A stretch of DNA of 64,000 nt from Anaerotruncus rubiinfantis (GTDB lineage: Bacteria > Bacillota > Clostridia > Oscillospirales > Ruminococcaceae). The stretch spans positions 310,001 to 374,000 of the forward strand of contig NZ_FKLA01000008.1 in NCBI RefSeq assembly GCF_900078395.1. The letters run 5' to 3'. The notes beneath the pieces were generated by a model. The model saw only the letters and a program-made list of their open reading frames with translations, did no database searches and was not told the DNA's origin. Both the position numbers and the translations under genes were made by a program. Positions 17,739 to 56,786 of the stretch are shown piece by piece. The first letter of the stretch is position 1. Every line of letters begins with the position of its first letter.

Positions 17739-17858
17739 ACCAAGGCTTTTTTCGTGGGTGTCAAAGGGTGTGCGATACATTTATCCTTTTCCCCCGGAAA
17801 CGGCGTTCTAAATGCGTACAAACCGCCAAAATCAACCCGAACACAGGGAGGTGATCCT

Positions 17859-19444: not shown

Positions 19445-19458
19445 AAGGAGCATTGCCT

Positions 19459-19647
19459 ATGGCAGATAACAAGCAGCACGACACCCGCACCGCCCGCCGC
19501 CCCGACTGCGTGACGGAAATCCGCATGGGCAATTCCGTCCTTGTCGTGTCCGGCTATTTCAAAAAAGACACGACCACCACCGCCGCCGACAAAATGGCGC
19601 GGGTACTGGAAGCGGAAGCCGCTGCTACACAAAAACCGGCGATTTGA
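19459..19647 (+). CDS. tnpW: TnpW-family small protein
   Basis: 62-residue protein of the transposon-encoded TnpW family known from Tn4451-like elements: basic N-terminus, then CVTEIRMGNSVLVVSGYFKKDTTTTAADKM. ATG 19459 follows AAAGGAG. It lies directly between the helicase loader and the serine recombinase. Function is not established; position suggests an accessory role in excision or its control. Confidence 0.8.
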   Translation: MADNKQHDTRTARRPDCVTEIRMGNSVLVVSGYFKKDTTTTAADKMARVLEAEAAATQKPAI

Positions 19648-19690
19648 CAAGCTGTAAAGAAGCAGATTTGACACTTTTTCCGCTATACAA

Positions 19691-21375
<1,685 letters not shown>

Positions 21376-39828: not shown

Positions 39829-40929
39829 ATGATGAAAAAGAACAACATCCGCATTAAACTGACCGCATCCCTTGCCGCGTTGGCCCTGCTTGCCGGCCTG
39901 ATGGCCGGCTGCGGCTCCTCGTCCGCCCCGGCGTCCTCTGCGGCACCCGCCGCGGCCGCGCCGTCTCAGAGCCAGGCGCAGTCTGAACAGGCCGCGCCCG
40001 CGGAAAAGATCACGCTGGTGTTCACCACCGCCTCGCTGCCGGATGTTTCCTACACCAAGGTGCTTTACGATGTGATCAAACCGGAGCTTGAAAAGCTTTC
40101 GAACGGTCAGATCGAGCTCGAAGTCCACGATTCCGGATCACTTTTCAGCCAGGATGACGAGCTGCCCGCAACCATCAAAGGCAATGCTTCGATGTGCTAT
40201 ACCGACGCGACCTGGCTGGCTACCTATATGCCTTCAATGAATATGATTGCCGCTGGCTACATGTTCAAGGACAAGGACCATATGGATAAAGTGCTAAACG
40301 GCGAAATTGGGCAGCAGCTCTTTGAACAGACCGCGAAAGAAGTCGGCGTGCGCCCACTGTACGCCTATTACATCGGCGCGCGCGTGGTCGGCATGCGCGA
40401 TGGCCGCGCGATCATGAGCCCGGACGACCTCAAAGGGGTCAAACTGCGTATGCCGAACTCGGAATCCTGGCTCTTTCTTGGTAAGGCGCTGGGCAGCAAC
40501 CCGGTCCCGATTGCCTTTTCCGAGCTTTACACCGCGCTCCAGTCCGGCACGGTCGACGGCCTCGAAAACCCGATCTCCGGCTTGGAAGAGGGCAAGTTTT
40601 ACGAGGTCATCAAGTCGATCTCGCTGACCAACCATATGATCGGCGCGGTCTGGCCGTGCATCAATGAAGAAATCTGGCAGAGCCTCACGCCGGAGCTGCA
40701 GAAGAACGTGCTGGATGCGTTTAAAAAGGGTCTGGACGCAAACGACGAGCTGGCGCTGCAGGACGAAGAAGTCCTTCTGGAAAAATATAAGGAGCTGGGC
40801 GTCGAAGTGATGACCCCCGATGTGGAGGCATTCAAAAAACAGGTCAACGACTTTTATCTGAACGATTCGGAGATGGTGAAGGACTGGGATATGGACCTGT
40901 TCGAGCAGATCAAAGCGATGGGCGAATAA
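39829..40929 (+). CDS. dctP: TRAP transporter solute-binding lipoprotein (DctP family)
   Basis: Extracytoplasmic receptor of a TRAP transporter (366 aa). Signal peptide ends in a lipobox (LAGLMAGC) at about residue 28, then a Ser/Ala/Pro/Gln linker to about residue 60. The mature part has DctP features: EVHDSGSLFSQDDELP, LKGVKLRMPNSESW near residue 205 (substrate Arg motif) and the LYTALQSGTVDGLENP stretch. AGGAAAGAGGGAG precedes the start; ATG at 39829 or 39832 would both serve. A hairpin and the two permease genes follow. Confidence 0.92.
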   Translation: MMKKNNIRIKLTASLAALALLAGLMAGCGSSSAPASSAAPAAAAPSQSQAQSEQAAPAEKITLVFTTASLPDVSYTKVLYDVIKPELEKLSNGQIELEVHDSGSLFSQDDELPATIKGNASMCYTDATWLATYMPSMNMIAAGYMFKDKDHMDKVLNGEIGQQLFEQTAKEVGVRPLYAYYIGARVVGMRDGRAIMSPDDLKGVKLRMPNSESWLFLGKALGSNPVPIAFSELYTALQSGTVDGLENPISGLEEGKFYEVIKSISLTNHMIGAVWPCINEEIWQSLTPELQKNVLDAFKKGLDANDELALQDEEVLLEKYKELGVEVMTPDVEAFKKQVNDFYLNDSEMVKDWDMDLFEQIKAMGE

Positions 40930-40942
40930 ATCCTGTAAGACG

Positions 40943-40968
40943 GCGGGCCGGGGATGTCCCCGGCCCGC
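40943..40968 (+). promoter_or_regulatory. Hairpin between TRAP receptor and permease genes
   Basis: GCGGGCCGGGGA pairs perfectly with TCCCCGGCCCGC across two bases; no T-run. Probably stabilises or attenuates the upstream receptor mRNA. Confidence 0.6.
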
Positions 40969-41004
40969 GCAAAACCCGGCCCTGCCGACAGAGGAGGAAT
41001 CCGA

Positions 41005-41520
41005 TTGAAAATACTTCGCCGCATCTGGGAAGTGATCGAGAAAGTGATAGGGATCTATCTTCCGTGTGTGACCTTCCTGATCATGTTTGTGTCCTTTTGC
41101 ATCCAGATCATCTGCCGTTACCTGTTCAATTACCAGTTTGAGTGGACCTATGAGTTTACCGTCATCGGGTTCATGTGGACAGCTGTTTTCGGCGCCTGCT
41201 ACAGCAGCAAAATCCGGGATCATGTCTCCTTCAATCTGATCTATGACCGCCTGGGCAGCAAGGGCCAGGCGCTGATGTCCCTGGCGGGCAACCTGATTAT
41301 AATCGTGGCATTTTTTCTGCTGATCCCGTATGCGGTGGAATATATCTCTTTCATGGATATTAAGACCACGCCGGTGCTCAAACTTTCGTTTGGCGTGGCA
41401 TATGCACCGTTTCTGATTTTTCTGCTTTTTAGTATCATCTATATCATTCGGGACATCGTGCTGGCCATCCGCACGCTGTTCGGCCTGTACAGGCTGCCGA
41501 AGAAGGAGGATGCCGCATGA
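41005..41520 (+). CDS. dctQ: TRAP transporter small permease (DctQ family)
   Basis: Small membrane subunit (171 aa) with four helices: about residues 13-35, 48-68, 88-110 and 126-150. FLIMFVSFCIQIICRYLFNYQFEWTYEF carries the family pattern. TTG start at 41005 lies 7 nt after GAGGAGG, preferred over upstream in-frame codons inside the hairpin region. Its stop overlaps the DctM start (ATGA), as is usual. Confidence 0.88.
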   Translation: MKILRRIWEVIEKVIGIYLPCVTFLIMFVSFCIQIICRYLFNYQFEWTYEFTVIGFMWTAVFGACYSSKIRDHVSFNLIYDRLGSKGQALMSLAGNLIIIVAFFLLIPYAVEYISFMDIKTTPVLKLSFGVAYAPFLIFLLFSIIYIIRDIVLAIRTLFGLYRLPKKEDAA

Positions 41521-42800
41521 GCTTTTCCACCTGGATCCCGATCATTATGATGGTTCTGACCTTCGCGCTCAATATTCCCGTCACTTACGGTATGGTTGCG
41601 GCGGGCGCGTTTTATCTACTGTATACAAGCGCCGATCTCGGAATTGTAGTTGGGCAGGTCATGGGAACCATGTACACCGGCTATGTGCTCATGGCCATCC
41701 CGCTTTTCATCTTCACCGCCAACGTCATGAATTCCGGCAAGGTTACTGACGCCATGTTCGACTTCTCAAAAGCGGCGGTCGGCAAAAAACGAGGTGCGCT
41801 GGCATATGTAAACGTGCTGATCTCGCTGATTTTTTCCGGCATGACCGGTTCCGCGATCGCGGATGCGGCCGGCATGGGGCTCATGGAGATCAAAGCGATG
41901 GAAAAGGACGGCTATGACCTGCCGTTCAGCTGCGCCATCACGGCGGCTACCGCGACCATTGGCCCAATCTTCCCGCCGAGTATCCCGTTCGTCATCTATG
42001 CAATGCTTTCCGGCACCTCAGTGGGCGCGCTTTTCCTGGGCGGCGTGGTCCCCGCGATCCTGATTGCGGTGGCCCTGTCCCTCTATATTGCTTATGTTTC
42101 CCAAAAAAGAAAATACCCGGAAGGCATCAAGTTCTCCCCGCGGGAATTTTGGCGTTTCACCCTGCGGGCGCTGCCGGCGCTCCTGACGCCGGTTATTCTG
42201 CTGGCGGGCATCTATACCGGGGTCATGACCCCGACCGAAGCGGGTGCGATCGCCGCGCTTTATGCGCTCATCATTTCGGTTTTTGTTTACCGGATTCTGG
42301 GCTGGAAGGAATTTCAGCAGACGGTGAAAGACACGGCTTTCTCCACCGGCTCGATCACGATTCTCACAGCCGCGGCGGCGGTGTTCTCCTATATTGTGGC
42401 CAAAGAGAAAATTCCGGACATGGTTTCGGATTTCATGCTGGGCATCACCGACAACAAGATTGTTCTGCTGCTCATCATCAACGCGCTGTTTCTGGTGCTT
42501 GGGATGTTCCTGGATACAGCGGTGCTCCAGTATGTATTCCTGCCGATGGTGATTCCAATTGTGCGGGTGTTGGGGATCGATATGGTACATTTCGGCGTGC
42601 TCATCTGCCTGAACATGATGATCGGCCTCTCCACGCCTCCGTTTGGATTTTTGCTGTTTGTCACCGCGAACATTGCCAAAACGTCCCTCAGCGCGGTGGT
42701 GCGCGAGGTGCTGCCAATGGTTGGGGTTCTGTTGGTTGTGCTGATGCTGTTGACATTCGTCCCGCAGTTGGTGCTGTTTGTGCCCAGCCTGATGGGATAG
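41517..42800 (+). CDS. dctM: TRAP transporter large permease (DctM family)
   Basis: Ion-coupled transport subunit (427 aa, about 12 helices). Signature blocks are SLIFSGMTGSAIADAAGMG near residue 105, ATIGPIFPPSIPFVIYAML near 145, GVMTPTEAGAIAALYAL near 240 and GLSTPPFGFLLFV near 365. Complete, and coupled to dctQ by a 4-nt overlap. With the receptor at 39829 it forms a full transporter for an acid substrate of the surrounding pathway. Confidence 0.95.
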   Translation: MSFSTWIPIIMMVLTFALNIPVTYGMVAAGAFYLLYTSADLGIVVGQVMGTMYTGYVLMAIPLFIFTANVMNSGKVTDAMFDFSKAAVGKKRGALAYVNVLISLIFSGMTGSAIADAAGMGLMEIKAMEKDGYDLPFSCAITAATATIGPIFPPSIPFVIYAMLSGTSVGALFLGGVVPAILIAVALSLYIAYVSQKRKYPEGIKFSPREFWRFTLRALPALLTPVILLAGIYTGVMTPTEAGAIAALYALIISVFVYRILGWKEFQQTVKDTAFSTGSITILTAAAAVFSYIVAKEKIPDMVSDFMLGITDNKIVLLLIINALFLVLGMFLDTAVLQYVFLPMVIPIVRVLGIDMVHFGVLICLNMMIGLSTPPFGFLLFVTANIAKTSLSAVVREVLPMVGVLLVVLMLLTFVPQLVLFVPSLMG

Positions 42801-45946: not shown

Positions 45947-45960
45947 TGAAAACGTTTTCA
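45947..45960. promoter_or_regulatory. LacI/CcpA-type operator site A
   Basis: TGAAAACGTTTTCA, a perfect 14-bp palindrome with central CG, 25 nt before the SDR start. The same core occurs at 47265, 48508 and 48581, all around the LacI-family gene at 47308. Confidence 0.85.
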
Positions 45961-45984
45961 TCATCGACGAAAGGAGCAAAGCTG

Positions 45985-46740
45985 ATGGACTTATTCTCAT
46001 TGGAAGGAAAAATTGCACTGGTCACCGGCTGTGCGGGCGGCATTGGAGCCGGACTCGCATCCGGGCTCGCCAAGGCGGGCGCGGATATTGTCGCGGTCGA
46101 CCGGGCGGATCTCTCCGAAACCGCCGAAAAAATCCATGCGCTCGGGCGGGCATGTCACTGTGTCGAGGCCGATCTATCGACGCAGGAGGGGGTAGGCAAG
46201 GCTTGGGAATCCGCTGTCGCGGCGGCCGGGAAGATCGATATCCTCTGCAACAATGCCGGCATGCAGCACCGGGAAAGCATCCTGACCTATCCTCAGGAGG
46301 TGCTCGACAAGGTGCTGGCGGTCAATTTAAAGGCACCGTACGATCTGGCACAGAAAGCCGCGCGGCATTTCATTGCGCGCGGATGCAGAGGCAAGATCAT
46401 CAACACCGCCTCGCTGTTTACCAGCTTCGGCGGCGTTGAAGTGAGCGGCTATACCTGTTCGAAACATGCGATCCTGGGACTCACCCGCGCGCTTTCAAAC
46501 GAACTGTCCGGCAAGGGCATTTGTGTCAATGCGATCGCACCCGGTTATGTTGAAACCGAACTCACCCGCGCGATCTGGAGCGACCCTGTGCGGCGCGCCC
46601 CAATGGATGAACGCCTGCCGATCGGGCGCTGGGGGCGCCCGGAGGATTTTGAAGGGGTCGCGGTCTTTCTGGCAAGCGCGGCTTCCGATTATATCACAGG
46701 TGTGATGATCCCGGTGGACGGCGGCTATTCCGCGCGGTGA
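45985..46740 (+). CDS. Short-chain dehydrogenase/reductase (SDR)
   Basis: Classical SDR (251 aa). NAD(P) loop TGCAGGIGAGLASGLA, NNAGM near residue 90, catalytic Ser in TASLFTSFGG, Tyr-Lys in YTCSKHA, and IAPGYVETEL all match. The aspartate after the second strand (VAVDRAD) favours NAD. It probably interconverts a ring or chain alcohol and ketone of the substrate handled by the operon. AAAGGAG precedes the ATG; operator A lies just upstream, so it is likely in the regulon of the LacI protein at 47308. Confidence 0.9.
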   Translation: MDLFSLEGKIALVTGCAGGIGAGLASGLAKAGADIVAVDRADLSETAEKIHALGRACHCVEADLSTQEGVGKAWESAVAAAGKIDILCNNAGMQHRESILTYPQEVLDKVLAVNLKAPYDLAQKAARHFIARGCRGKIINTASLFTSFGGVEVSGYTCSKHAILGLTRALSNELSGKGICVNAIAPGYVETELTRAIWSDPVRRAPMDERLPIGRWGRPEDFEGVAVFLASAASDYITGVMIPVDGGYSAR

Positions 46741-46787
46741 CCCGTCCTTTGGGATGATAAAAATTTTAGAAAAAGAGAGGTACGGAT

Positions 46788-47165
46788 ATGGAACTCTGCA
46801 ACATATTTGAAATTGAGGGAATGGAAATGCCGGCGGGCCGCAGGACGCGTGTGATGATCGGGCAGAATGGCGCGATCAAAGGAGACAAGTTCTGCCAGGG
46901 GTATGTCGTGGTATATCCGGGCGGCACGGTTCCGGCGCATGAGCACGAAACGGTGGAGTCCTACACTATCCTGAAAGGCGAAGGGGAACTGACTGTTGAT
47001 GGGGAAGTGCGCAAGGTCAAAGCGGGCGACTATACCTTCATCCCGCCGATGCTTTCTCATGCCCTCGCCAACACCGGTGAGGAGGATCTGCACATGATGT
47101 TCGTCTATGCGCCGAGCGTGGTGGTTGACCATTGGGCGCAGGAACAGTCCGGCGAATTAAAGTAA
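46788..47165 (+). CDS. Single-domain cupin protein
   Basis: 125-residue cupin. Motif 1 (PGGTVPAHEHETVESYTILKGEGELTVDG) supplies two histidines and a glutamate; motif 2 (AGDYTFIPPMLSHALANTG) supplies the third histidine, so a bound metal is expected. Such small cupins serve as isomerases or lyase partners in sugar-acid operons. It lies 47 nt after the SDR gene, probably on the same mRNA. Substrate unknown. Confidence 0.85.
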   Translation: MELCNIFEIEGMEMPAGRRTRVMIGQNGAIKGDKFCQGYVVVYPGGTVPAHEHETVESYTILKGEGELTVDGEVRKVKAGDYTFIPPMLSHALANTGEEDLHMMFVYAPSVVVDHWAQEQSGELK

Positions 47166-47227
47166 AATTGGACTTGAATTTTTCGATTCCGCTGAAATTT
47201 TTGACGATATTTTGGGGAATTTGACTA

Positions 47228-47278
47228 TTGAAAACAGGAAAACATTTTGTTATTATTATGTCGATGAAAACGTTTTCC
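47228..47278 (+). promoter_or_regulatory. Promoter and operator site B of the LacI gene
   Basis: TTGAAA (47228) and TATTAT (47251) with 17-bp spacing place transcription start near 47263, and TGAAAACGTTTTCC (47265-47278) covers that point. A repressor bound there would block its own gene. Confidence 0.75.
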
Positions 47279-47307
47279 TAAAATTTTGAAATGCAGAAGG
47301 GCATCCT

Positions 47308-48357
47308 ATGTCGACGATTCGAGATGTTGCGCGTCTGGCAAATGTATCGATCAGCACGGTTTCGCGCGTGATGAACAATACCGCCCCGGTGGAGGAAGAA
47401 ACCAGACAACGCGTGATGGATGCCGTACAGGTGACCGGGTACAAGGCGAGCGCAATTGCGAAAGCTTTGAAAAGTGGCCGTACCAATACGATCGCTTTTG
47501 TCATCCCAAATCTGGTCAATATGATTTACCCATCCCTTGCGATCACTGTGGAAAATGAAGCGCAGAAATACGGTTATTTCGTGCTGTTCTGCAATACGCA
47601 GGAGGAGCAAGCGAAGGAAAAGGGGTACGTTGAAAAGCTCAAAGGGGACTTTGTGGACGGATTCCTTTTTTCCACAGCGCTGGCCGGCGGCGAAAGCGCC
47701 GAGATCTATAAGCTTCGCCGGGAAGGCGTCCCGGTGGTCTGCCTGATGCGTGAAACCGGAGATCCACGGGATTCGGTTGTTTCGGACAATTTGGAGGGGG
47801 GATATCTCGCCGCCAAATATCTGTTGGACCGGGGATTTCGTGAGATTGCCGTCGTGTGCGGGCGTCAAAACCTGGCGCTGTATGGGCAGCGGCTTGCGGG
47901 TTACAAAAAGGCCCTTGCGGAATATGGGGTCCCATTCAATCCGTCCATCTGTCTGGAAGGCGTTAAGGACGGGCGGGAGAACGGTTCCGAATGCATCCTG
48001 TCCTACTACAAAAAATATAACCGGATTCCGGAAGCGATCTTCGCATCGAGCGACCCGCTCGCATTCGACGTGATGATCACCCTGAACCGGTTGGGCTGTT
48101 CCATCCCGCGGGATGTTTCGGTCATCGGATTCGATAATGTCCCATTTGCGGAGAATTATTACCTGACCACGGTGGAACAGAAACTCTATGAAATGGCGCG
48201 TGCCGCGACCAGGCAGCTGATCGCGATCATTGAAAAGCGTGAGCCGCCCGATCAGCCGCAGCAGGTTTTTCCCGTACGGGTGGTGGAGCGGCAGTCGGTT
48301 CGCGCTGCGGACGGCAGAGAAGAGAATAAGGAATTGCACATACCATGCGCGTTTTAG
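47308..48357 (+). CDS. LacI-family transcriptional regulator
   Basis: Repressor of 349 aa: HTH and hinge (STIRDVARLANVSISTVSRVMNNTAPVEEETRQRV...YKASAIAKALKSGRTNTIAFV) followed by a sugar-binding-protein-like domain (GVPVVCLMRE, VIGFDNVPFAENYYLTTVEQ). AGAAGGG lies before the ATG. Four TGAAAACGTTTTCN palindromes flank the gene and its neighbours, one on its own transcription start. It therefore likely controls the SDR-cupin and AroE-TRAP-reductase units, with the transported acid or a product as inducer. CcpA also recognises similar cores, so shared control is possible. Confidence 0.92.
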   Translation: MSTIRDVARLANVSISTVSRVMNNTAPVEEETRQRVMDAVQVTGYKASAIAKALKSGRTNTIAFVIPNLVNMIYPSLAITVENEAQKYGYFVLFCNTQEEQAKEKGYVEKLKGDFVDGFLFSTALAGGESAEIYKLRREGVPVVCLMRETGDPRDSVVSDNLEGGYLAAKYLLDRGFREIAVVCGRQNLALYGQRLAGYKKALAEYGVPFNPSICLEGVKDGRENGSECILSYYKKYNRIPEAIFASSDPLAFDVMITLNRLGCSIPRDVSVIGFDNVPFAENYYLTTVEQKLYEMARAATRQLIAIIEKREPPDQPQQVFPVRVVERQSVRAADGREENKELHIPCAF

Positions 48358-48371
48358 CGCGTGGTATGTGC
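48336..48371 (+). terminator. Hairpin overlapping the LacI stop codon
   Basis: GCACATACCATGCGC pairs perfectly with GCGCGTGGTATGTGC around a 6-base loop that includes the TAG stop. No strong T-run follows, so termination is uncertain; mRNA stabilisation is an alternative. Confidence 0.5.
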
Positions 48372-48507
48372 CGGACGATCTTTTAATAGGTGAAGGAGTA
48401 GTGTGGCCGGTTTGGGGCCGGCAAAGAAGGAACTGTTTTGGGACCGGATGACAACATACATTCTTCAAAATGCCTGAAAACAAAAGATCATTATTTTTTG
48501 CGAGTCA

Positions 48508-48594
48508 TGAAAACGTTTTCTTGAGACGCCTTGGTGTGTGAAAGGCGTATACGGGAAAAACAATATTTTTTTGCCGCACTTGAAAACGTTTTCA
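48508..48594. promoter_or_regulatory. Paired operator sites C and D before the AroE-TRAP operon
   Basis: TGAAAACGTTTTCT (48508-48521) and TGAAAACGTTTTCA (48581-48594) lie 73 bp apart, about seven helical turns, suiting looping by a tetramer or side-by-side dimers. Site D is 17 nt before the AroE start. Confidence 0.82.
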
Positions 48595-48611
48595 TAGGAG
48601 GTGATATATCC

Positions 48612-49511
48612 ATGGAACCATTCATTGTCAATGCCAAAACCGACCTTTATGCGATCCTCGGAGACCCCATTTCCCATTCGATGTCCCCGGTCATCCACAA
48701 TAACGCCTTCCGGCGTTTCGGGATGGATAAGGTTTTCCTGGCGGTCCGCTGCGATCCCGAACACGTCGATGAAATGATGCGTTCGCTCCGGTTCATGGAC
48801 CTGAAGGGATATGTTTTCACAATGCCGCTCAAGGAAATGGTCTTTTCCCATATGGATGAGGTCAAGGACGAGGCCGAAATCACCGGCGCGATCAACTGTG
48901 TGCAGAATGAGAATGGCAGGCTGATCGGCTACAACACCGACAGCCGCGGATTCTGGACGGCGGTTGCTTCCCGCAATGTCAAAAACCGGCCAATCAACCG
49001 GGTATTTATCCTTGGGATGGGCGGCTTTGCCAAAGCGGCTGCCGCACAGGCGGCGCTGCAGGGGGTAAAGGAGATCATTGCGGTCAACCGCATGGAAGAA
49101 ACCGCCTATGTGGACAGCTTCCGGGCTTTTGCCGGGCGCCTGCAGAAGAAAGCGCCGCACAGCACGGTGTGTCTTATGGACTGGGACCCGGCCGGGTGGA
49201 AAGAGGCGCTTGCCGGCGCCGACGTGGTGGCGAACGCCACGCCGAACGGCCTTAACTGCGACGGCGATCTGTATTTGCAGTTCCCGTACGAATATGCGGA
49301 CCCGGACGCGATCTTTTTCGACGCGATCTATACCCCGCTCAAGACCAAATTTCTGGAAAAAGCCGAGCAGCTCGGGCATCCGATTGTGGACGGGCTGGAT
49401 CTGCTTTCGCATCAGGGCGTCTGTTCGTTCAAGATTTGGACCGGTATGGACGTGGAGCCTGAGCAGATGCGGCAGGATGGGCTGCGTTTCATCCAGGAAT
49501 CCGCACATTGA
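48612..49511 (+). CDS. Shikimate/quinate dehydrogenase family (AroE/YdiB-like)
   Basis: NAD(P)-dependent dehydrogenase (299 aa). Substrate residues of AroE are retained: Ser23 and Ser25 in ISHSMSP, Thr70 and Lys74 in FTMPLKE, Asn95 in GAINCV, Asp110 in YNTDSRGF, and Gln in LLSHQGVC. The residue matching E. coli AroE Asn59 is Val68, as YdiB-like catabolic enzymes also vary there. The cofactor loop is ILGMGGFAKAAAAQAAL. ATG 48612 follows AGGAGGTGAT. Inside an operon with TRAP transport and flavoproteins, a catabolic role on quinate, shikimate or a relative is more likely than aromatic biosynthesis. Confidence 0.85.
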   Translation: MEPFIVNAKTDLYAILGDPISHSMSPVIHNNAFRRFGMDKVFLAVRCDPEHVDEMMRSLRFMDLKGYVFTMPLKEMVFSHMDEVKDEAEITGAINCVQNENGRLIGYNTDSRGFWTAVASRNVKNRPINRVFILGMGGFAKAAAAQAALQGVKEIIAVNRMEETAYVDSFRAFAGRLQKKAPHSTVCLMDWDPAGWKEALAGADVVANATPNGLNCDGDLYLQFPYEYADPDAIFFDAIYTPLKTKFLEKAEQLGHPIVDGLDLLSHQGVCSFKIWTGMDVEPEQMRQDGLRFIQESAH

Positions 49512-49573
49512 TTTGTCATTTATGAGGATTCCCTCATAAAAATAAAAAACAGCAAAAGAAAAGGAGAAAAGAT

Positions 49574-50644
49574 ATGAAAAAACTACTTGCTCTTACTCTG
49601 GCGCTTGCAATGGTCCTCTCGTTTGCAGCTTGCGGCGGTTCTTCCGCTCCCGCGTCCTCCGCGGCCCCTGCAGCGTCCACACCCGCGGCTTCCACTGCTC
49701 CGGCGGATTCCTCCGCTGCTCCCGCAGATTCCGGTGAAGCTGAATATGTCCTGAAGCTGGGCGATGTTCTGGCTGAAGACCACCCGCATTCCCAGTCCTA
49801 CTACTGGTTTGCAGACCGTGTCGCGGAACTGACGGGCGGCAAGGTCAAGGTGGAAGTGTATGTCAACTCCTCGCTGGGCAACCAGTCCGACCTGGTGGAA
49901 GGACTGAGCCTTGGCACCGTCCAGATCGCAAAATCGATGACCACCGGCCTGTCGGTTTACTGCCCTGAGATCCAGATCTTCGACCTGCCTTACATGTTCC
50001 AGAACACGGATCAGTTCTTCAAAGTCATCGACGGCGAAATCGGCGAGTACTATGCGAAAGACGTTCTGGGCACCCAGGATATGATCGGCATCGCTTACTT
50101 CTATGCCGGCTCCCGCAGCTTCTACACCAACAAACCGATCAACGCCCTGAGCGACATCAAGGGCTGGAAGATCCGCGTTCCGGAGTCCCCGATCTTCATG
50201 GGCCTGTGCGATTCGTTTGGCTGCGCGGGCACCCCGATGAGCGTTGGCGAGCTGTACACCGCTCTGCAGACCGGCGTTGTTGACGGCGCTGAGAACGCTC
50301 CGATCTTCTACTATCAGCAGAAACACTTTGAGGCGGCTCCGTACCTGACCATGACCGAGCACATCATGACTCCGGATATCGTTGTCATGAGCAAAAGCTA
50401 CCTCGAATCCCTGCCGCAGGAATACCAGGATGCGATCATCCAGGCTGGTAAGGATATGATGCAGTACGAGCGCGAACTGTGGTTCTCCCAGGAAGAGGAC
50501 GCCATGACCGCGCTGAAAGACGCCGGCGTGACTGTCACCGAGGTCGACAAGGCCGAGTGGATCGCTGCCGCGCAGAAAGTTTGGGACAACTTCCGTGACG
50601 TTGTCGGCCAGGAGAACATCGATAAGATCCAGGCTCTGGCATAA
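49574..50644 (+). CDS. dctP: TRAP transporter solute-binding lipoprotein (DctP family)
   Basis: Receptor of the second TRAP system (356 aa). Signal peptide with lipobox LSFAAC at about residue 21, then a Ser/Ala/Pro linker to about residue 55. DctP features: GKVKVEVYVNSSLGNQSDLVEGL, IKGWKIRVPESPIFMGL (substrate Arg) and GELYTALQTGVVDGAENAP. AAGGAGAAAAG precedes the ATG. Base composition and codon use are strongly biased, consistent with high expression. The substrate is probably the acid processed by the adjacent dehydrogenases and flavoproteins. Confidence 0.93.
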   Translation: MKKLLALTLALAMVLSFAACGGSSAPASSAAPAASTPAASTAPADSSAAPADSGEAEYVLKLGDVLAEDHPHSQSYYWFADRVAELTGGKVKVEVYVNSSLGNQSDLVEGLSLGTVQIAKSMTTGLSVYCPEIQIFDLPYMFQNTDQFFKVIDGEIGEYYAKDVLGTQDMIGIAYFYAGSRSFYTNKPINALSDIKGWKIRVPESPIFMGLCDSFGCAGTPMSVGELYTALQTGVVDGAENAPIFYYQQKHFEAAPYLTMTEHIMTPDIVVMSKSYLESLPQEYQDAIIQAGKDMMQYERELWFSQEEDAMTALKDAGVTVTEVDKAEWIAAAQKVWDNFRDVVGQENIDKIQALA

Positions 50645-50688
50645 GTTCAGAAGATTCCGGCTTTCCTGTTTGTTGTATGGTCAAACAT

Positions 50689-50715
50689 GCGCCCAGTGGG
50701 AACTCCACTGGGCGC
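50689..50715 (+). promoter_or_regulatory. Hairpin between TRAP receptor and permease genes
   Basis: GCGCCCAGTGG pairs perfectly with CCACTGGGCGC around GAACT; no T-run. Same position as the hairpins at 1099, 40943 and 63715. Confidence 0.6.
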
Positions 50716-50744
50716 AAATACAATAACACGCTTTGGAGGCAAGT

Positions 50745-51218
50745 ATGAAAACTTTCTTTTCCGGCTTGCGGAAAGTGGAAACGGCCCTGGCGGTTATCTC
50801 GATGGTGGCTTTCACCGCGGTCGCTTTTCTGCAGGTTACCTTCCGTGTATTTTTACATAACCCATTGGGCTGGTCGGAGGAATTGTGCAAATTCCTTTTC
50901 ATCTGGTGTACCTTTATCGGCGCGATCCTGGTTTCCGCCGACAACGGACACTTCTGTGTGGATTTCTTTGTGACCAAATGCTCCCCGGTTGTGCAGAAGA
51001 TTCTCAAATACCTGAGCTTTGTGCTGGTGGCCCTTTTCAGCGTCATTCTGATCTATTTCGGTGTGAAACTGATGATGTCCAATACCAACCGTATCTCGCC
51101 CGCGCTGGGGATCCAAATGAGCTATATCTACACGATTTTCCCAATCAACGGCGTGCTGGTGATCCTGCACCTGATCGAATCGATCTGGAAAGACGCCAAA
51201 GCAAGAAAGGAGGCCTGA
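50745..51218 (+). CDS. dctQ: TRAP transporter small permease (DctQ family)
   Basis: Small membrane subunit (157 aa) with four helices; FLQVTFRVFLHNPLGWSEELCKFLFIWCTFIGA near residue 28 is the DctQ signature. ATG 50745 is placed 7 nt after TTGGAGG, which itself contains an in-frame TTG four codons earlier. Followed 6 nt later by dctM. Confidence 0.9.
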   Translation: MKTFFSGLRKVETALAVISMVAFTAVAFLQVTFRVFLHNPLGWSEELCKFLFIWCTFIGAILVSADNGHFCVDFFVTKCSPVVQKILKYLSFVLVALFSVILIYFGVKLMMSNTNRISPALGIQMSYIYTIFPINGVLVILHLIESIWKDAKARKEA

Positions 51219-51224
51219 CGCAAT

Positions 51225-52490
51225 ATGGCAATGGTATTTATTATTTTGATCATCATGTTGGTTCTCGGAATCCCGATTGCGTATGCGATCGGCCTGGCGG
51301 CGACCTGGGGATTGCTTTTTGTGGGCAACGTCCCGCTGACGGTTGTGCCGCAGCGCATGTATACCATGCTCGACACCTTTTCGCTTTTGGCAATCCCGTT
51401 CTTCATCCTGGCGGGCAACCTGATGGAAAAGGGCGGCATCTCAAGAAAGCTGATCACCTTTGCAAACAGCATCGTCGGCCATATCCGCGGCGGGTTGGGC
51501 ATGGTGGACATCCTCAGCTGCATGCTTTTTGGCGCGATCTCCGGTTCCGGTTCGGCCGCGAGCGCGGCGATCGGAGGCATCTGCATCCCTTCGATGCGCG
51601 AACAGGGCTACGACAAGGAATTCTCCGGTGCTATCACCGCGGTTTCCGGCCCGCTCGGCATCATCATCCCGCCAAGCGTCGTCATGGTCATCTATGCGAC
51701 CACCGCCAATGTTTCGGTCGGTTCGATGTTCCTGGCCGGCTACCTGCCCGGCTGCTTCCTCGGCATCGCCATGATGGCCTGCGTCTATGTCATTGCGCAT
51801 AAGAAAGGCTATCCGGCTGGGCGGCGCGCAACGGTCAAGGAATTTTTTATCGCGCTCAGGGACGCGGTATGGGCGCTCTTCATGATCTTCATCATCATCG
51901 GAGGCATCTTCTCGGGCTATTTCACCGCGACCGAAGCGGCCTGTGTGTCAGTGGTCTATGCACTGATCGTCGGCTTTTTCATCTACCGGGAACTGCACCT
52001 GTCCGATCTCACTGACATTTTCGTCAAGAGCGCGATGACCTCTTCGGGTATCATGTTCTGCGTTGCGACCACCAACATCCTCGCATGGCTGATGACCAGC
52101 CAGAATGTTGCCGCGAAAGTTGCCGCGTCGATGAGCTCGGTTATTTCGAGCAAAATTGTGATGCTGCTTGCGATCAACGTCATCTTCCTGATCCTCGGCA
52201 CATTCCTCGATTCCACGCCTGCAATTATCCTCGCTGTCCCGATCCTGCTCCCGCTGGTGACCCAGTTCGGCGTTGACCCGGTGCACTTCGGCATTATCGT
52301 CACCGTCAACCTGGCAATCGGTATGAGCACGCCTCCGGTCGGCATCACCCTGTTTGTTTCCTCCCGCATTTCGGAGACTTCGCTGACAGATATGATCAGG
52401 CCGATGCTGCCGTTGTGGGCGGTTATGATTGTGGCGCTGCTGGTAATTACCTTCTTCCCGCCGCTGAGCATGCTGCTGGTCAATATGTAA
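51225..52490 (+). CDS. dctM: TRAP transporter large permease (DctM family)
   Basis: Transport subunit (421 aa, about 12 helices). Signature blocks: LLAIPFFILAGNLMEKGGIS near residue 58, MLFGAISGSGSAASAAIGG near 100, GPLGIIIPPSVVMVIYA near 143, GYFTATEAACVSVVYAL and GMSTPPVGITLFVSS near the end. Complete and intact. Together with the receptor and DctQ it forms the import system of the reductase operon. Confidence 0.95.
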   Translation: MAMVFIILIIMLVLGIPIAYAIGLAATWGLLFVGNVPLTVVPQRMYTMLDTFSLLAIPFFILAGNLMEKGGISRKLITFANSIVGHIRGGLGMVDILSCMLFGAISGSGSAASAAIGGICIPSMREQGYDKEFSGAITAVSGPLGIIIPPSVVMVIYATTANVSVGSMFLAGYLPGCFLGIAMMACVYVIAHKKGYPAGRRATVKEFFIALRDAVWALFMIFIIIGGIFSGYFTATEAACVSVVYALIVGFFIYRELHLSDLTDIFVKSAMTSSGIMFCVATTNILAWLMTSQNVAAKVAASMSSVISSKIVMLLAINVIFLILGTFLDSTPAIILAVPILLPLVTQFGVDPVHFGIIVTVNLAIGMSTPPVGITLFVSSRISETSLTDMIRPMLPLWAVMIVALLVITFFPPLSMLLVNM

Positions 52491-52531
52491 AGTTGGGCGG
52501 CCCAGAAATCAGAGAGGAGAGCGTTCCCCCC

Positions 52532-54538
52532 ATGCAAGAGAATACGAAAATCGCCATATCGGGCGTGGAAATCCCCGTCCATTTTTACAATACCATTGTA
52601 ATCGGTTCGGGGGCAGCGGCTTTCAACGCCGCCGACAGTCTTTACGATTTCGGCCAGAAAGACGTTGCGATCGTGACCGAAGGGGTCAATATGGGCACCT
52701 CGCGCAATACGGGTTCGGATAAACAGACCTACTACAAGCTTTCCCTGGCCTCCGGGACTCCGGATTCGGTTTATGATATGGCAAAGGTGCTGTATGGGGG
52801 ACAGTCGGTCCATGGCGACACCGCTCTGGTGGAAGCCGCCCTTTCGGCCAGATGCTTTTACAAACTGGTCAATTTGGGAGTGCCGTTCCCACATGACCGT
52901 TACGGCCAGTATGTGGGTTATAAGACCGACCATGACCCCTCCCAGCGCGCGACCTCCTGCGGGCCGCTGACTTCCCGGTACATGACCGAGCATCTCGAAC
53001 GCTCGGTCCGGCAGAAGGGGATTGCGGTTTTTGACGCTTTGCGGATTGTCAGCCTGCTGACCCGGGAAGAAAACGGCGAAACCAGCGTTGTCGGCGCGCT
53101 TGCCATCAATAAACGCAGCCCGTCCGCCAAGGAAGGGCTCACCCTGTTCGGCTGTACCAACGTCGTCTACGCGACCGGCGGCCCGAGCGGGCTTTACTAC
53201 CGCAGCGTTTTCCCACAGAGCCAGACCTGCGCCCACGGCGCGGCGTTTTTGTGCGGGGCGAAGGGCAGCAATGTGGGCGAATGGCAGTACGGCATCGCGT
53301 CCACCGATTTTAGGTGGAATCTTTCGGGCACCTACCAGCAGGTCATCCCGCGCTACCTCTCAACCGCGCCCGATGGGTCGGACGCGCGGGAGTTTCTGCT
53401 GGACTATTTCGAGGACCCGCAGGCGATGCTGAACGCGGTGTTCCTCAAGGGATACCAGTGGCCGTTTGACCCGCGCAAGGTACAAAAGGGCGGCTCGTCC
53501 CTTGTGGACATCGCTGTTTATCACGAAATCAACCGCAAGGGGCGCAGAGTGTTCCTCGACTTTACAAAGAACCCCTCCTGCGCGGGAAAAGACGGGACGT
53601 TTGACTTCTCGCTGCTTTCCCAGGAAGCCTATCAATACCTGGAAAAATCGGGCGTGCTGTTCGGCACACCAATTGAACGTCTGCTGGCGATGAACCGGCC
53701 GGCCTATCAGCTCTATGCCGATCATGGGATCGACCTCACAAGGGACCTTTTGGAGATCGCCGTCTGTGCGCAGCACAATAACGGCGGCCTGCAGGCGGAT
53801 ATGTGGTGGCAGTCGAATGTGAAGCATCTGTTCCCGGTGGGGGAGGCCTGCGGCAACTTCGGCGTTTACCGGCCGGGCGGCAGCGCGCTCAACGCGGGGC
53901 AGGTGGGTTCGCTGCGCGCCGCGCAGTATATCGCTGCGCGGGCGGCCGAGCCGCCGCTTTCCCCAGAGGCGCTGCAAGCTGCTGCTGAAGTGGAGGTTTC
54001 CCGTATTTTGTCTTTCTGCGACGAACTGGCCAAGCCCGGAGAGGAAAAATTGCCGCCCAAACAGGTTCGGGAGAAATACCAGCGTGAGATGGATGTCTGC
54101 GCGGCGTTCCTGCGCCGCAGCCAGGAAATCGAACAACAGATCGAACGGTGCAGGGGCTATCTCAGGGACTTCACCCGCCAGACGCTTGCGGACAGCACCG
54201 GCCGCGTGGTTGACGCGTTGATCAACCGGGATATCCTGGTCACGCAGATTGTCTACCTCAGCGGCATGAAGGCATACATTTCGGACGGCGGCGGAAGCCG
54301 CGGTTCCTATCTGGTCGACCGCGGCGATATCAGCTATGACGACTGCCGCGCGAATGGCGTTGCGTCGGTTCTGGATGATGGCCGCCATGCCGGATCCGTC
54401 CAGGAAGTGACGCTGGAGCCGGACGGCCGGGTCGTGGTGGAGAATATCCCCCGCAGGCCGCTTCCGGAGGACAACTGCTGGTTTGAGGTCACCTACAACG
54501 ATTATCTGAACGACCGTGTGGTCGGTGCAAAGGGATAG
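52532..54538 (+). CDS. FAD-dependent fumarate reductase/aspartate oxidase-like flavoprotein
   Basis: Soluble flavoprotein (668 aa) of the SdhA/FrdA/NadB/AprA superfamily. FAD loop NTIVIGSGAAAFNAADSL near residue 19, a second FAD strand TNVVYATGGPSGLYY near 210, and the C-terminal FAD motif HNNGGLQADMWWQSNVKHLFPVGEACG near 420 with SALNAGQVGSLRAAQYIA. No signal peptide, flavin-transfer domain, haem site or iron-sulfur partner gene is present, unlike respiratory fumarate reductases. It is followed after 11 nt by an Fe-S OYE protein, a probable electron partner or next step. GAGGAG lies 13 nt before the ATG. Substrate unknown. Confidence 0.85.
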   Translation: MQENTKIAISGVEIPVHFYNTIVIGSGAAAFNAADSLYDFGQKDVAIVTEGVNMGTSRNTGSDKQTYYKLSLASGTPDSVYDMAKVLYGGQSVHGDTALVEAALSARCFYKLVNLGVPFPHDRYGQYVGYKTDHDPSQRATSCGPLTSRYMTEHLERSVRQKGIAVFDALRIVSLLTREENGETSVVGALAINKRSPSAKEGLTLFGCTNVVYATGGPSGLYYRSVFPQSQTCAHGAAFLCGAKGSNVGEWQYGIASTDFRWNLSGTYQQVIPRYLSTAPDGSDAREFLLDYFEDPQAMLNAVFLKGYQWPFDPRKVQKGGSSLVDIAVYHEINRKGRRVFLDFTKNPSCAGKDGTFDFSLLSQEAYQYLEKSGVLFGTPIERLLAMNRPAYQLYADHGIDLTRDLLEIAVCAQHNNGGLQADMWWQSNVKHLFPVGEACGNFGVYRPGGSALNAGQVGSLRAAQYIAARAAEPPLSPEALQAAAEVEVSRILSFCDELAKPGEEKLPPKQVREKYQREMDVCAAFLRRSQEIEQQIERCRGYLRDFTRQTLADSTGRVVDALINRDILVTQIVYLSGMKAYISDGGGSRGSYLVDRGDISYDDCRANGVASVLDDGRHAGSVQEVTLEPDGRVVVENIPRRPLPEDNCWFEVTYNDYLNDRVVGAKG

Positions 54539-54549
54539 AGAGGAATACC

Positions 54550-55872
54550 ATGGAGCATACAAAATTTCACTATCATTCACTGGATGAAATCAGGGCGGAA
54601 CAGCAGCGGGTGGGAGTTTCTTTTCCGCTGAGCGCGGACACCGCGGTTCTGAATACGCCGTTTAACTTCGGCAAGGTGGAGATCCGTAACCGTCTGGGCA
54701 TCGCGCCAATGGAAGGAGCGGATTCCAATCCGGACGGTTCGCCTTCCGAAAAGACTTTTGAACGTTATATCCGCCTTGCGAAAGGCGGCGCGGGCGTCAT
54801 CTGGCTGGAAGCGGTCGCGATTGTGCCAGAGGGCCGGTCCAGCCCGCATCAGCTTTTGCTCAGTCGGGAGACGCTGCCGGCTTTCCAGCGGCTGACCGCG
54901 CAGGTCAAGGAGGCGGGTATGCGGGCAAACGGCTTTGCCCCCTATCTGATCATGCAGGCCAATCACAGTGGACGTTATGCCAAACCGGACGGCGTGCCCA
55001 AGCCGATCATCGCTTACCGGCACCCAATTTATGAACAGCGCCGTCCCGCGGACGACAGCTGCATCGCGAGCGATGATTACCTGAAGGGCCTGGAGGAGAA
55101 ATTCGGTCAGGCGGCGGTACTCTGCCGGGAAGCAGGGTTCGACGCGGCCGACATCAAGAGCTGCCACGGCTACCTGCTCGCGGAACTCGCGTCAGCCTAT
55201 ACCCGGCCGGGCCCGTATGGCGGCAGTTTTGAAAACCGGTTCCGTCTCTTTATCAACGCGTTTAAAAACGCAAAGCAGGCGGAGACCGACGATTTCCAGG
55301 TGGTGGCGCGGGTTGGCATCTATGACGGTTACGCTTATCCCTATGGGTTTGGCGTACGGCCGGAAGGCGGACTTGCGCCGGACTATACGGAAGGCGTCCG
55401 GCTGATGAAAATCCTGTATGAGGAATGCGGTCTGCAATTTGCCAATATCACGATGGGAAACCCTTATGAGGATACCCACGTCACCCGCCCGTATGATCTG
55501 GGCAACTATCCGCCGCCGGAGCATCCGTTTGAGGGTATCGCGCGGATGTACGAGGGATGCAAAGCGGTGAAAGAAGCGTTGCCGGATCTGATGGTTTCGG
55601 CGTCGGCGCCCAGCTATCTGCGTGCTTATTCACCGAACCTGGCAGCGGGAGCGATTCTGGACGGCTGCTGCGATGAAGTGCTGTTTGGACGGCTGTCCTT
55701 TGCCGATCCGGAGTTCCCCAATGAAATTGCGGCGACCGGGACGATCGATCCCAAAAAGGTCTGTGTGACCTGCGGCAAATGCGGGGTTCTGATCCGCGCC
55801 GGCAAGCTGACCGGATGTGTGGTGCGTATGCCGCACCCCTATCTGGACATCTTGCGCAGTATGAATACATAA
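54550..55872 (+). CDS. Old-yellow-enzyme family reductase with C-terminal [4Fe-4S] motif
   Basis: FMN TIM-barrel oxidoreductase (440 aa) resembling the first half of 2,4-dienoyl-CoA/enoate reductases. Barrel motifs: RNRLGIAPMEGADSNPDG, the active-site SCHGYLLAELASAYTR and the GPYGGSFENRFR loop. A cluster motif, Cys405, Cys408, Cys411 and Cys423 (CVTCGKCG..GC), follows, but the protein ends there without the FAD/NAD(P)H half found in full-length enzymes. It must receive electrons from another protein; the flavoprotein encoded just upstream is the obvious candidate. Likely reduces or oxidises a C=C next to a carbonyl or carboxyl. Confidence 0.86.
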   Translation: MEHTKFHYHSLDEIRAEQQRVGVSFPLSADTAVLNTPFNFGKVEIRNRLGIAPMEGADSNPDGSPSEKTFERYIRLAKGGAGVIWLEAVAIVPEGRSSPHQLLLSRETLPAFQRLTAQVKEAGMRANGFAPYLIMQANHSGRYAKPDGVPKPIIAYRHPIYEQRRPADDSCIASDDYLKGLEEKFGQAAVLCREAGFDAADIKSCHGYLLAELASAYTRPGPYGGSFENRFRLFINAFKNAKQAETDDFQVVARVGIYDGYAYPYGFGVRPEGGLAPDYTEGVRLMKILYEECGLQFANITMGNPYEDTHVTRPYDLGNYPPPEHPFEGIARMYEGCKAVKEALPDLMVSASAPSYLRAYSPNLAAGAILDGCCDEVLFGRLSFADPEFPNEIAATGTIDPKKVCVTCGKCGVLIRAGKLTGCVVRMPHPYLDILRSMNT

Positions 55873-55889
55873 AAGGGGATAATGTCAAA

Positions 55890-56669
55890 ATGATGAAAAA
55901 AGTTGCTGTTGTCACCGGCGCCCGCAGGGGGATCGGCCTCGGCATTGCGAAAGAGCTGGGCCTGGCCGGCTGTTATGTGGTCATGTCCGCGTTTTCCGCC
56001 GACGCGCAGGATGCGCTGGAAGAGATGAAAGCGCTGGGCCTGCAGGACAGCTGTGAATATATGCAATGCGATATTTCAGACGCGCCCTCCCGCGAGGCCC
56101 TGCTCGGTGCGGTCTGTCAAAAGTTCGGCCGACTCGATATTCTGGTGAACTGTGCGGGTGTCGCGCCCAAGAGCCGGTTGGATTTGCTGGAAACCACCGA
56201 GGAAAGCTACGACTATGTGGTGAATACCAACGCCCGTTCAACCTTCTTTATGTGCCAGCTTGCGGCCAACAAGATGATTGCCTTCAAGGAAGCGGGAGAC
56301 ATCGCGGAATATTCCCCGCGTATCATCAATATTTCTTCGATTTCCGCCTATACTTCCTCGACCAACCGTGCCGAATACTGTATCTCCAAAGCAGCAATCT
56401 CGATGACCACCCAGCTGTTTGCAGACCGTCTGGCCGATTACGGTATTCCGGTCTTTGAGGTCCGCCCGGGGATTATCATGACCGACATGACCGCGAAAGT
56501 GGCTGAAAAATACGAAAAACTTATCTCGGAAGGCGTTACGCCGATCCGGCGCTTCGGCCAGCCGAAGGATGTCGCCAACTGTGTTGTCGCTGCCTGCAGC
56601 GGCCGGTTGGACTTTGCCACCGGCCAGGTGCTGAATGCGGATGGAGGTTTCTCCATTCGCCGTCTGTGA
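55890..56669 (+). CDS. Short-chain dehydrogenase/reductase (SDR)
   Basis: SDR of 259 aa, last gene of the operon. NAD(P) loop TGARRGIGLGIAKELG (the two arginines favour NADP), NCAGVAPKS, catalytic Ser in NISSISAYTSS, Tyr-Lys in YCISKAA, and RPGIIMTDMT. ATG 55890 is chosen after AAAAGGGG; the next codon is also ATG. It differs from the SDR at 45985 in cofactor region and substrate loop, suggesting a different step of the same route. Confidence 0.9.
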   Translation: MMKKVAVVTGARRGIGLGIAKELGLAGCYVVMSAFSADAQDALEEMKALGLQDSCEYMQCDISDAPSREALLGAVCQKFGRLDILVNCAGVAPKSRLDLLETTEESYDYVVNTNARSTFFMCQLAANKMIAFKEAGDIAEYSPRIINISSISAYTSSTNRAEYCISKAAISMTTQLFADRLADYGIPVFEVRPGIIMTDMTAKVAEKYEKLISEGVTPIRRFGQPKDVANCVVAACSGRLDFATGQVLNADGGFSIRRL

Positions 56670-56696
56670 GTTGTCCGGCAGGCATCCTCTAAAAGC

Positions 56697-56740
56697 AAAA
56701 AATCCGCCCGTCCATTTTTAAATGGACGGGCGGATTTTTT
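56697..56740. terminator. Strong bidirectional terminator
   Basis: AAAAAATCCGCCCGTCCAT and its complement form a stem of about 20 bp with flanking A and T runs, between the SDR (plus) and DeoR (minus) genes. Confidence 0.9.
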
Positions 56741-56786
56741 GTAATGTTCCTTTAGGCGGAGGAATCCCGTGGACGGCATCGGCCTG

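What the first reader, a model, noticed from the sequence alone, without database searches (positions are those of the whole stretch)
45947..56669. Candidate undescribed hydroaromatic or sugar-acid pathway: AroE + TRAP + FrdA-like flavoprotein + half-size Fe-S OYE + two SDRs under one LacI regulator
Seen: ten genes with shared palindromes. The OYE protein ends right after its four-Cys cluster motif and lacks the NAD(P)H/FAD half, while the FrdA-like flavoprotein lacks any Fe-S or haem partner; encoded 11 nt apart, they may form an electron-transfer pair. The AroE-like enzyme keeps most shikimate-binding residues. Inference: an imported quinate/shikimate-like acid is oxidised or dehydroxylated by dehydrogenases and reduced by flavoproteins, possibly as an anaerobic electron sink. 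I know of no described pathway with this exact set.
Basis: partly seen in the sequence, partly recalled or inferred. Interest (0 to 1): 0.8.

Follow-up and report, generated by a model that had tools for sequence, protein, structure and literature searches.

The report
Uronate-type operon with paired flavoproteins
A clostridial bacterium, to judge by its relatives, carries a switchable gene set that probably imports a uronic-acid-like sugar acid and breaks it down with two unusual, uncharacterised flavin enzymes and a dehydrogenase, a trio that turns up in quite different bacteria.

Summary
In detail: ten genes (45985-56669), four palindromes, and a short OYE 11 nt from a FrdA-like flavoprotein (FAD). 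The set is not a one-off. LacI-AroE-DctPQM-FAD-OYE-SDR2-SDR1 recurs at 49-71% identity in a genome matching Caproiciproducens sp. NJN-50. The core is wider: of 100 FAD loci, OYE is near in 68, SDR2 in 74, both in 58. In one family OYE is in 39 of 40 FAD+ and 0 of 40 FAD- genomes.

Context favours sugar acids over hydroaromatics. The TRAP receptor is closest to glucuronate/galacturonate receptors; SDR1 is KduD-like; uronate isomerase UxaC is in 38 of 40 FAD+ against 17 of 40 FAD- genomes. AroE is in 3 of 101 loci, window included, and the NJN-50-like genome has a separate quinate/shikimate-type cluster.

The electron-transfer pair is only partly supported: of 20 genomes with FAD but no OYE in the fetched locus, 11 have no OYE found anywhere (mostly drafts). 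Substrate and reaction remain unproven.

The parts
45947..45960 (.). operator-like palindrome TGAAAACGTTTTCA upstream of SDR1
45985..46740 (+). SDR1, KduD-like short-chain dehydrogenase
   Evidence: TIGR01832 kduD 297 bits, below its 338.85 cut-off; best solved relative 4z9y, 2-deoxy-D-gluconate 3-dehydrogenase, E 6e-69
46788..47165 (+). small cupin (Cupin_2), possibly a sugar-acid isomerase (inference); similar cupins lie near FAD in 6 other loci at 48-67% identity
   Evidence: (L029, L042, L059, L071, L073, L079)
47265..47278 (.). operator-like palindrome upstream of lacI
47308..48357 (+). LacI-family regulator
48508..48521 (.). operator-like palindrome upstream of aroE
48581..48594 (.). second operator-like palindrome upstream of aroE, 73 nt from the first
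48612..49511 (+). AroE-like dehydrogenase; keeps Lys74, Asp110, Asn95, Gln268; Val where canonical AroE has an Asn
49574..50644 (+). DctP, TRAP solute receptor of the hexuronate-binding type
50745..51218 (+). DctQ, TRAP small permease
51225..52490 (+). DctM, TRAP large permease
52532..54538 (+). FAD: FrdA/SdhA-fold flavoprotein, member of a widespread uncharacterised family
54550..55872 (+). OYE: short Old Yellow Enzyme-type flavoprotein with four-Cys [4Fe-4S]-type motif, no NAD(P)H/FAD half
55893..56669 (+). SDR2, third member of the conserved core
   Evidence: NF009386 301 bits, over its cut-off of 250
56695..56742 (+). strong intrinsic terminator-like hairpin after SDR2
   Evidence: 20-pair stem followed by T-rich stretch

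Best explanation
A LacI-type-regulated operon for uptake and breakdown of a uronic-acid-like sugar acid. Shown by sequence: a TRAP importer of the hexuronate-receptor type; a conserved three-enzyme core (SDR2, the FrdA-fold FAD flavoprotein and the short Fe-S OYE) found in several phyla; and peripheral dehydrogenases and isomerases (AroE-like, KduD-like SDR1, cupin) that differ between lineages. Inferred: the acid enters through TRAP. The AroE-like enzyme and the SDRs oxidise or reduce hydroxyl groups. The FAD enzyme makes or removes a C-C double bond, or the equivalent beta-keto group, next to the carboxylate. OYE, acting downstream on the FAD product, reduces a conjugated C=C. The carbon leaves as a 2-keto-3-deoxy acid (KDG type) through KDG kinase and KDPG aldolase. 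The exact substrate, direction and electron donor are not known.
For: Same operon in a second genome, with LacI-type palindromes before lacI and before aroE there too. Triad: OYE in 68, SDR2 in 74, both in 58 of 100 FAD loci; 57 of the 58 on one strand; 45 as OYE-SDR2-FAD within 5.5 kb. OYE in 39 of 40 FAD+ and 0 of 40 FAD- genomes of one family. UxaC 38/40 v 17/40 (p 4e-7), KDPG aldolase 37/40 v 17/40 (p 2e-6), UxuA 31/40 v 15/40 (p 6e-4); altronate-dehydratase family 20/40 v 4/40. DctP's best solved relatives include receptors bound to glucuronate (4X8R) and galacturonate (4N8Y) and a D-glucuronate/D-galacturonate binder, 4MHF; 7BBR, bound to KDG, is also a hit (E 2e-44). Neighbours in other loci, by profile on one member each: UxaE, KDG-type kinase, IlvD/Edd, KduI/IolB, heparinase II/III-like; KDPG aldolase by profile 1.1-1.4 kb after FAD in G043 and G167; by eye UxaC, UxaA, GH28.
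Against: No UxaC, KdgK or KdgA lies in the operon itself. The 80 genomes are one family and not independent, and an unrelated control (AraA) also leans to FAD+ (16 v 7, p 0.047). GH88 does not track FAD (16 v 9, p 0.15). Most loci lack uronate genes nearby (KDG kinase in 12, UxaC in 5 of 98). DctP reads AENA where 5 of 5 solved relatives shown read AENN. In 5 of 98 loci CoA-transferase and enoyl-CoA hydratase genes lie near FAD, which fits a sugar-acid pathway poorly.
Confidence: 0.55

Rival explanations
1. Hydroaromatic pathway: imported quinate/shikimate is oxidised by AroE to dehydroshikimate, whose enone or unsaturated acid is reduced by OYE and FAD, as an electron sink.
For: AroE-like enzyme keeps the catalytic Lys and Asp and several other contact residues (roles recalled); AroE sits inside a TRAP/FAD locus again in Faecalibacterium at 30% identity; dehydroshikimate is a plausible ene-reductase substrate (inference).
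Against: AroE in 2 of 100 other FAD loci; AroE scores below NCBIfam equivalog cut-offs (213 v 252 for NF001319, 191 v 200 for TIGR00507); Asn of the binding loop replaced by Val/Val/Ala in the three TRAP-linked AroEs but kept in the biosynthetic AroE and both quinate-cluster AroEs of G291; a separate AroE-AroD-AroE cluster in that genome; receptor of uronate type.
Confidence: 0.15
2. Unsaturated-uronate pathway: the substrate is a 4,5-unsaturated hexuronate (a near-isostere of shikimate: ring, carboxylate on the C=C, allylic OH), oxidised at C3 by the AroE-like enzyme and reduced at C=C by OYE/FAD; cupin and KduD-like SDR1 act as in pectin-lyase-product catabolism.
For: KduD-like SDR1 and small cupin in the operon; KduI/IolB-family protein in the Faecalibacterium TRAP-AroE-FAD locus and heparinase II/III-like protein in the L028 triad locus. 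The isostere argument is inference.
Against: GH88 unsaturated-uronyl hydrolases do not track FAD (16/40 v 9/40, p 0.15) and none was found in the genome that shares the operon (G291).
Confidence: 0.12
3. Cyclitol or keto-sugar pathway: the core acts on inositol-like or 5-keto-acid intermediates.
For: A TIM-barrel protein with psicose-epimerase/IolO-type hits sits in the L111 operon; a Zn dehydrogenase of other loci also hits IolM; a KduI/IolB protein hits IolB best.
Against: All these scores are below the NCBIfam cut-offs; the kinase scored only slightly better with KDG kinase than with IolC (185 v 180 bits, both below cut-off); uronate genes co-occur.
Confidence: 0.08
4. FAD is a soluble respiratory-type reductase using an unsaturated acid as electron sink, with OYE as its redox partner.
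Against: 11 of 20 sampled genomes have FAD and no OYE found, with the same invariant residues; the aligned FrdA catalytic His and Arg positions differ (low confidence).
Confidence: 0.1

Closest known systems
Fumarate reductase / succinate dehydrogenase flavoprotein subunit (FrdA/SdhA) and L-aspartate oxidase
   Different: 13-21% identity (FrdA 16-17%); no FrdB-like Fe-S partner; FrdA HYTMGG is QHNNGG; FrdA catalytic Arg aligned near a Gln (low-confidence alignment; residue roles recalled); own family, whose 120 best listed members are 54% or more identical.
Fe-S Old Yellow Enzymes: 2,4-dienoyl-CoA reductase, 2-naphthoyl-CoA reductase, BaiCD, bilirubin reductase
   Different: 440 aa, no NAD(P)H/FAD half; Lys203 in KxxHGY where OYE has His or Asn (OYE motif recalled; 19 of 19 aligned); 20-22% identity to those two.
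TRAP receptors for D-glucuronate/D-galacturonate (4X8R, 4N8Y, 4MHF)
   Same: Best solved relatives; both ligand Arg and the Asn of the EN motif aligned (placed by motif).
   Different: AENAP instead of AENN; ligand not tested.
Shikimate / quinate dehydrogenases (AroE, YdiB)
   Same: Shikimate_dh_N and SDH_C domains, Lys74, Asp110, Asn95, Gln268.
   Different: Below the equivalog cut-offs; binding-loop Asn replaced by Val (YdiB lacks it too).
Anaerobic reduction of quinate/shikimate by lactobacilli (recalled, no paper seen)
   Same: Idea of a hydroaromatic acid as electron sink.
   Different: No gene-level comparison made here.

Membership tests
Complex II-type flavoprotein (FrdA/SdhA) | Fold over the whole flavoprotein | tested here: met
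Complex II-type flavoprotein (FrdA/SdhA) | Dedicated Fe-S partner subunit (FrdB type) encoded with it | tested here: not met
   No Fe-S subunit family among the ten genes
Complex II-type flavoprotein (FrdA/SdhA) | Catalytic His and Arg of fumarate reduction | tested here: inconclusive
   Aligned to Gln414 and about Gln270, but hhalign probability 83% with gaps
Fe-S Old Yellow Enzyme | OYE barrel with four-Cys cluster motif | tested here: met
Fe-S Old Yellow Enzyme | HxxH/HxxN carbonyl-binding pair | tested here: not met
   Lys203-x-x-His206 in 19 of 19 aligned members; the canonical motif is recalled
Fe-S Old Yellow Enzyme | C-terminal FAD/NAD(P)H domain of the long forms | tested here: not met
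   440 aa; the 120 listed homologs are 440-494 aa
Shikimate dehydrogenase (AroE) | Catalytic Lys and Asp | tested here: met
   K74, D110 invariant in the 6 AroEs aligned
Shikimate dehydrogenase (AroE) | Score over NCBIfam equivalog cut-off | tested here: not met
   213.3 v 252; 191 v 200.2
Quinate/shikimate dissimilation operon | 3-Dehydroquinate or dehydroshikimate dehydratase in the cluster | tested here: not met
   None among the ten genes; AroD-like gene present in the separate L143 cluster (by eye)
Hexuronate TRAP receptor | Two Arg and one Asn that hold D-glucuronate | tested here: met
   GSRSFY, KIRVPES and GAEN aligned with the solved receptors; assignment of the residues is by motif
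Hexuronate TRAP receptor | Binds a hexuronate | not testable with these tools
   Needs a binding assay
KduD | Score over TIGR01832 cut-off | tested here: not met
   297.1 v 338.85

The most novel reading that the evidence does not exclude
SDR2, FAD and OYE form an undescribed, widely spread sugar-acid transformation module. FAD oxidises a hexuronate-type acid next to the carboxylate, water is lost, and OYE gives the electrons back to the resulting C=C (directly from FAD in OYE-bearing lineages, through other carriers elsewhere). This is a two-flavoprotein, redox-neutral dehydration that reaches KDG without the classical mannonate/altronate dehydratase route.
Probability: 0.12. Interest if true: 0.75.

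Novelty: new variant of a known kind. Interest (0 to 1): 0.5.

Why it matters
The FAD family is large (7998 relatives at E 0.001 or better, a capped count), and the triad with its short OYE recurs from Clostridia to Halanaerobium, Aminicenantes, KSB1, Acidobacteria and Bacteroidetes by record title, yet the proteins shown bear only generic names. Within one family, near-perfect co-occurrence of the two flavoproteins and a strong link to uronate isomerase give a concrete, testable substrate class. If right, it adds a flavin-based branch to uronic-acid catabolism, an important carbon source from pectin and host glycans in the gut, and it warns that AroE-like genes next to TRAP transporters should not be read as shikimate genes by default.

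Tried and rejected
Hydroaromatic reading as the main one: kept as a rival only (reasons above). Idea that the triad serves polysaccharide-lyase products: GH88 did not track FAD, so it is demoted. Idea that OYE is a truncated gene: rejected, the short form is usual in the family. Idea that FAD of OYE-less genomes has changed: no alignment column separates 68 FADs with OYE in the locus (window included; one, L073, counted on a weak 24% OYE match) from 11 OYE-less ones by the rule 95% or more v 50% or less. Own-genome search for the operator or regulon: impossible, no genome held. Literature: nine searches of the held library, of which eight sought the pathway or its chemistry, gave no paper describing this set as far as the listings show. 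Subscription papers and preprint servers are mostly not held, so absence in print is not shown. Passages of two papers were read; the others were seen as listings only.

Limits: the gene caller in my scripts is a longest-ORF rule and sometimes called the wrong strand. Several neighbour names (UxaC, UxaA, GH28, Gfo/Idh in part, the L143 genes, the L149 biosynthetic cluster) are by eye; others rest on a profile hit of one representative. 36 of the 100 loci have less than 4 kb on one side of FAD, so absences there mean little; in the other 64, OYE is in 51, SDR2 in 55, both in 48. The 40 FAD- genomes were taken: 20 with no match and 20 with only weak matches (E 1e-8 or worse). The FAD+ set is the 40 strongest down to E 2e-150, with two of that range (G298, G304) left out. 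OYE presence was judged at E 1e-30. Most genomes are draft assemblies, so single absences may be gaps.
Full report
Observation. FAD (52532-54538) and OYE (54550-55872) are separated by 11 nt. The four palindromes TGAAAACGTTTTC(A/C/T) stand before SDR1, before lacI and twice before aroE, and nowhere else in the 64-kb window (with up to 1 mismatch, 8 strand matches against 0.11 expected). They also satisfy the CcpA cre consensus (recalled; 2 of 4 exactly), so a catabolite-repression role is a live alternative to the local LacI. A strong terminator-like hairpin follows SDR2 (56695-56742). AroE, DctP, DctQ, DctM, FAD, OYE and SDR2 look like one transcript; SDR1-cupin and lacI are separate units (inference from spacing and operators).

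Conservation of the whole set. In L111 (handle G291, contig of 3,308,050 bp, the same length as the contig of protein P0018, named Caproiciproducens sp. NJN-50) the order is LacI (49%), AroE (61%), DctP (58%), DctQ (56%), DctM (71%), FAD (60%), OYE (62%), SDR2 (67%), a TIM-barrel epimerase-like gene, SDR1 (71%). TGCAAACGTTATCA lies twice before aroE there, and a related palindrome lies before lacI. The cupin was not found in that locus. In the genome titled Faecalibacterium sp. I4-3-84 (L079/L147), AroE (30%) lies between DctP and DctQ, with DctM, a KduI/IolB-family protein, SDR2, FAD and LacI following.

The core. With 20 longer loci from one family this makes 100. OYE is in 68, SDR2 in 74 (44-70% identity) and both in 58; of the 58, 57 are on one strand and 45 in the order OYE-SDR2-FAD within 5.5 kb. 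Loci with all three include, by record title, Clostridia, Halanaerobium (L021), Aminicenantes (L033), KSB1 (L035), Acidobacteria (L048) and Bacteroidetes (L077). In 40 FAD+ and 40 FAD- genomes of the family of the Faecalispora jeddahensis genome, OYE was found in 39 and 0 respectively. The reverse dependence fails outside that sample. Of 23 FAD+ genomes searched, 3 have OYE beside FAD; of the other 20, 9 have OYE elsewhere and 11 have none found, including the Faecalibacterium genome titled complete. FAD active-site candidates (D133, Q252, W262, Q270, K306, Y308, W310, Q414, R447, N454) are identical in all 109 aligned FADs, and no column separates OYE-bearing from OYE-less lineages. I read this as OYE acting on, or taking electrons from, what FAD produces, with FAD able to work alone (inference).

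Substrate evidence. DctP's ten best solved relatives (E 6e-58 to 2e-51) include 4X8R (glucuronate), 4N8Y (galacturonate) and 4MHF (D-glucuronate and D-galacturonate); 7BBR (KDG) is also a hit (ligands read in passages of PMC11668362 and PMC7660916; the ligands of the other seven were not checked). The two Arg and the Asn described for D-glucuronate receptors are present by motif, but window, L111 and L042 read AENA where the 5 solved receptors shown read AENN, so the ligand may differ from plain hexuronates. SDR1 is KduD-like. Across 98 loci with a usable FAD, KDG kinase was found in 12, KDPG aldolase in 10, IlvD/Edd in 9, TRAP in 8, UxaC, UxaE and UxaA in 5 each, and AroE in 2 (similarity to representatives; UxaE, the kinase and IlvD/Edd checked by profile on one member each). 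At genome level, FAD+ against FAD-: UxaC 38/40 v 17/40 (p 4e-7), KDPG aldolase 37/40 v 17/40 (p 2e-6), UxuA 31/40 v 15/40 (p 6e-4), altronate-dehydratase family 20/40 v 4/40, AraA as control 16/40 v 7/40 (p 0.047), GH88 16/40 v 9/40 (p 0.15). Among genomes of 1.7 Mb or more, UxaC is in 34 of 34 v 14 of 28, AraA in 15 of 34 v 7 of 28. These genomes share ancestry, so the p values are too optimistic.

Hydroaromatic reading. The AroE-like enzyme keeps the catalytic Lys and Asp, but it scores under the NCBIfam equivalog cut-offs. In the binding loop it has Val (window), Val (L111) and Ala (L079) where the biosynthetic AroE of G291 (beside DAHP-synthase-like and AroB-like genes, by eye) and the two quinate-cluster AroEs of the same genome have Asn. 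E. coli YdiB, in the alignment, also lacks that Asn, so the change alone does not exclude quinate or shikimate. The separate cluster L143 in G291 (AroE-AroD-AroE with transporter, CoA-transferase, acyl-CoA dehydrogenases, CoA ligase and a full-length OYE; by eye) looks like the hydroaromatic locus of that genome. Similar clusters are in G131 and G312.

Mechanism. Shown: import gene set, conserved triad, co-occurrence with uronate isomerase. Inferred: sugar acid in; dehydrogenation or hydrogenation next to the carboxylate at FAD; C=C reduction at OYE; ketone chemistry at SDR2, SDR1 and AroE; exit as a 2-keto-3-deoxy acid. My confidence in the sugar-acid frame is 0.55; for any specific reaction it is below 0.15. 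Against it: CoA-transferase and enoyl-CoA hydratase genes lie near FAD in 5 of 98 loci (next to FAD in L029 and L049, near it in L006 and L051; enoyl-CoA hydratase by profile), which suggests CoA-linked chemistry in those branches; and most loci carry no uronate gene in the stretch fetched.

Verdict. A real, conserved and uncharacterised metabolic module; each part belongs to a known fold; the combination was not found in the held literature by the searches named. New variant of a known kind, interest 0.5.

Noticed in passing
L143 1-19901 (G291), L144 (G131), L145 (G312): Conserved cluster AroE-AroD-AroE, MFS transporter, CaiB-type CoA transferase, acyl-CoA dehydrogenases, full-length OYE of about 670 aa, CoA ligase, LysR: looks like an anaerobic CoA-dependent quinate/shikimate pathway (names by eye).
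   Followed up: partly
window 11246-21375: By eye, a Tet(M/W)-like ribosomal-protection GTPase followed by a mobilisable element with relaxase-like, replication-like and serine-recombinase-like genes, inserted in a sugar-metabolism region.
   Followed up: no
window 1-10000 and 21500-63681: Island rich in sugar/sugar-acid genes: TctC/TctB-like, Gfo/Idh, several xylose-isomerase-like TIM barrels, FGGY kinase, ribulose-phosphate epimerase, a second TRAP (39829-42800), a NanA-like aldolase, DeoR regulators (by eye).
   Followed up: no
L114 (G268): Two FAD genes in tandem (48% and 37% identity to the window FAD) next to SDR2 and OYE.
   Followed up: no
L028 14963-16819: Heparinase II/III-like protein in a triad locus with PTS genes and KDG kinase and KDPG aldolase genes (the last three by eye).
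   Followed up: partly
L008, L050, L053, L065: A uroporphyrinogen-decarboxylase-superfamily protein recurs near FAD (clustered; profile on the L008 member).
   Followed up: no
L079 14842-16209: Three MaoC-like dehydratase genes in a row between the FAD/LacI/SDR genes and the cupin of Faecalibacterium (profile on the first; others by eye).
   Followed up: no
window OYE (54550-55872), residues 203-208: Lys in place of the first OYE substrate-binding His, in 19 of 19 members aligned; could bind a carboxylate or form a Schiff base (speculation).
   Followed up: partly
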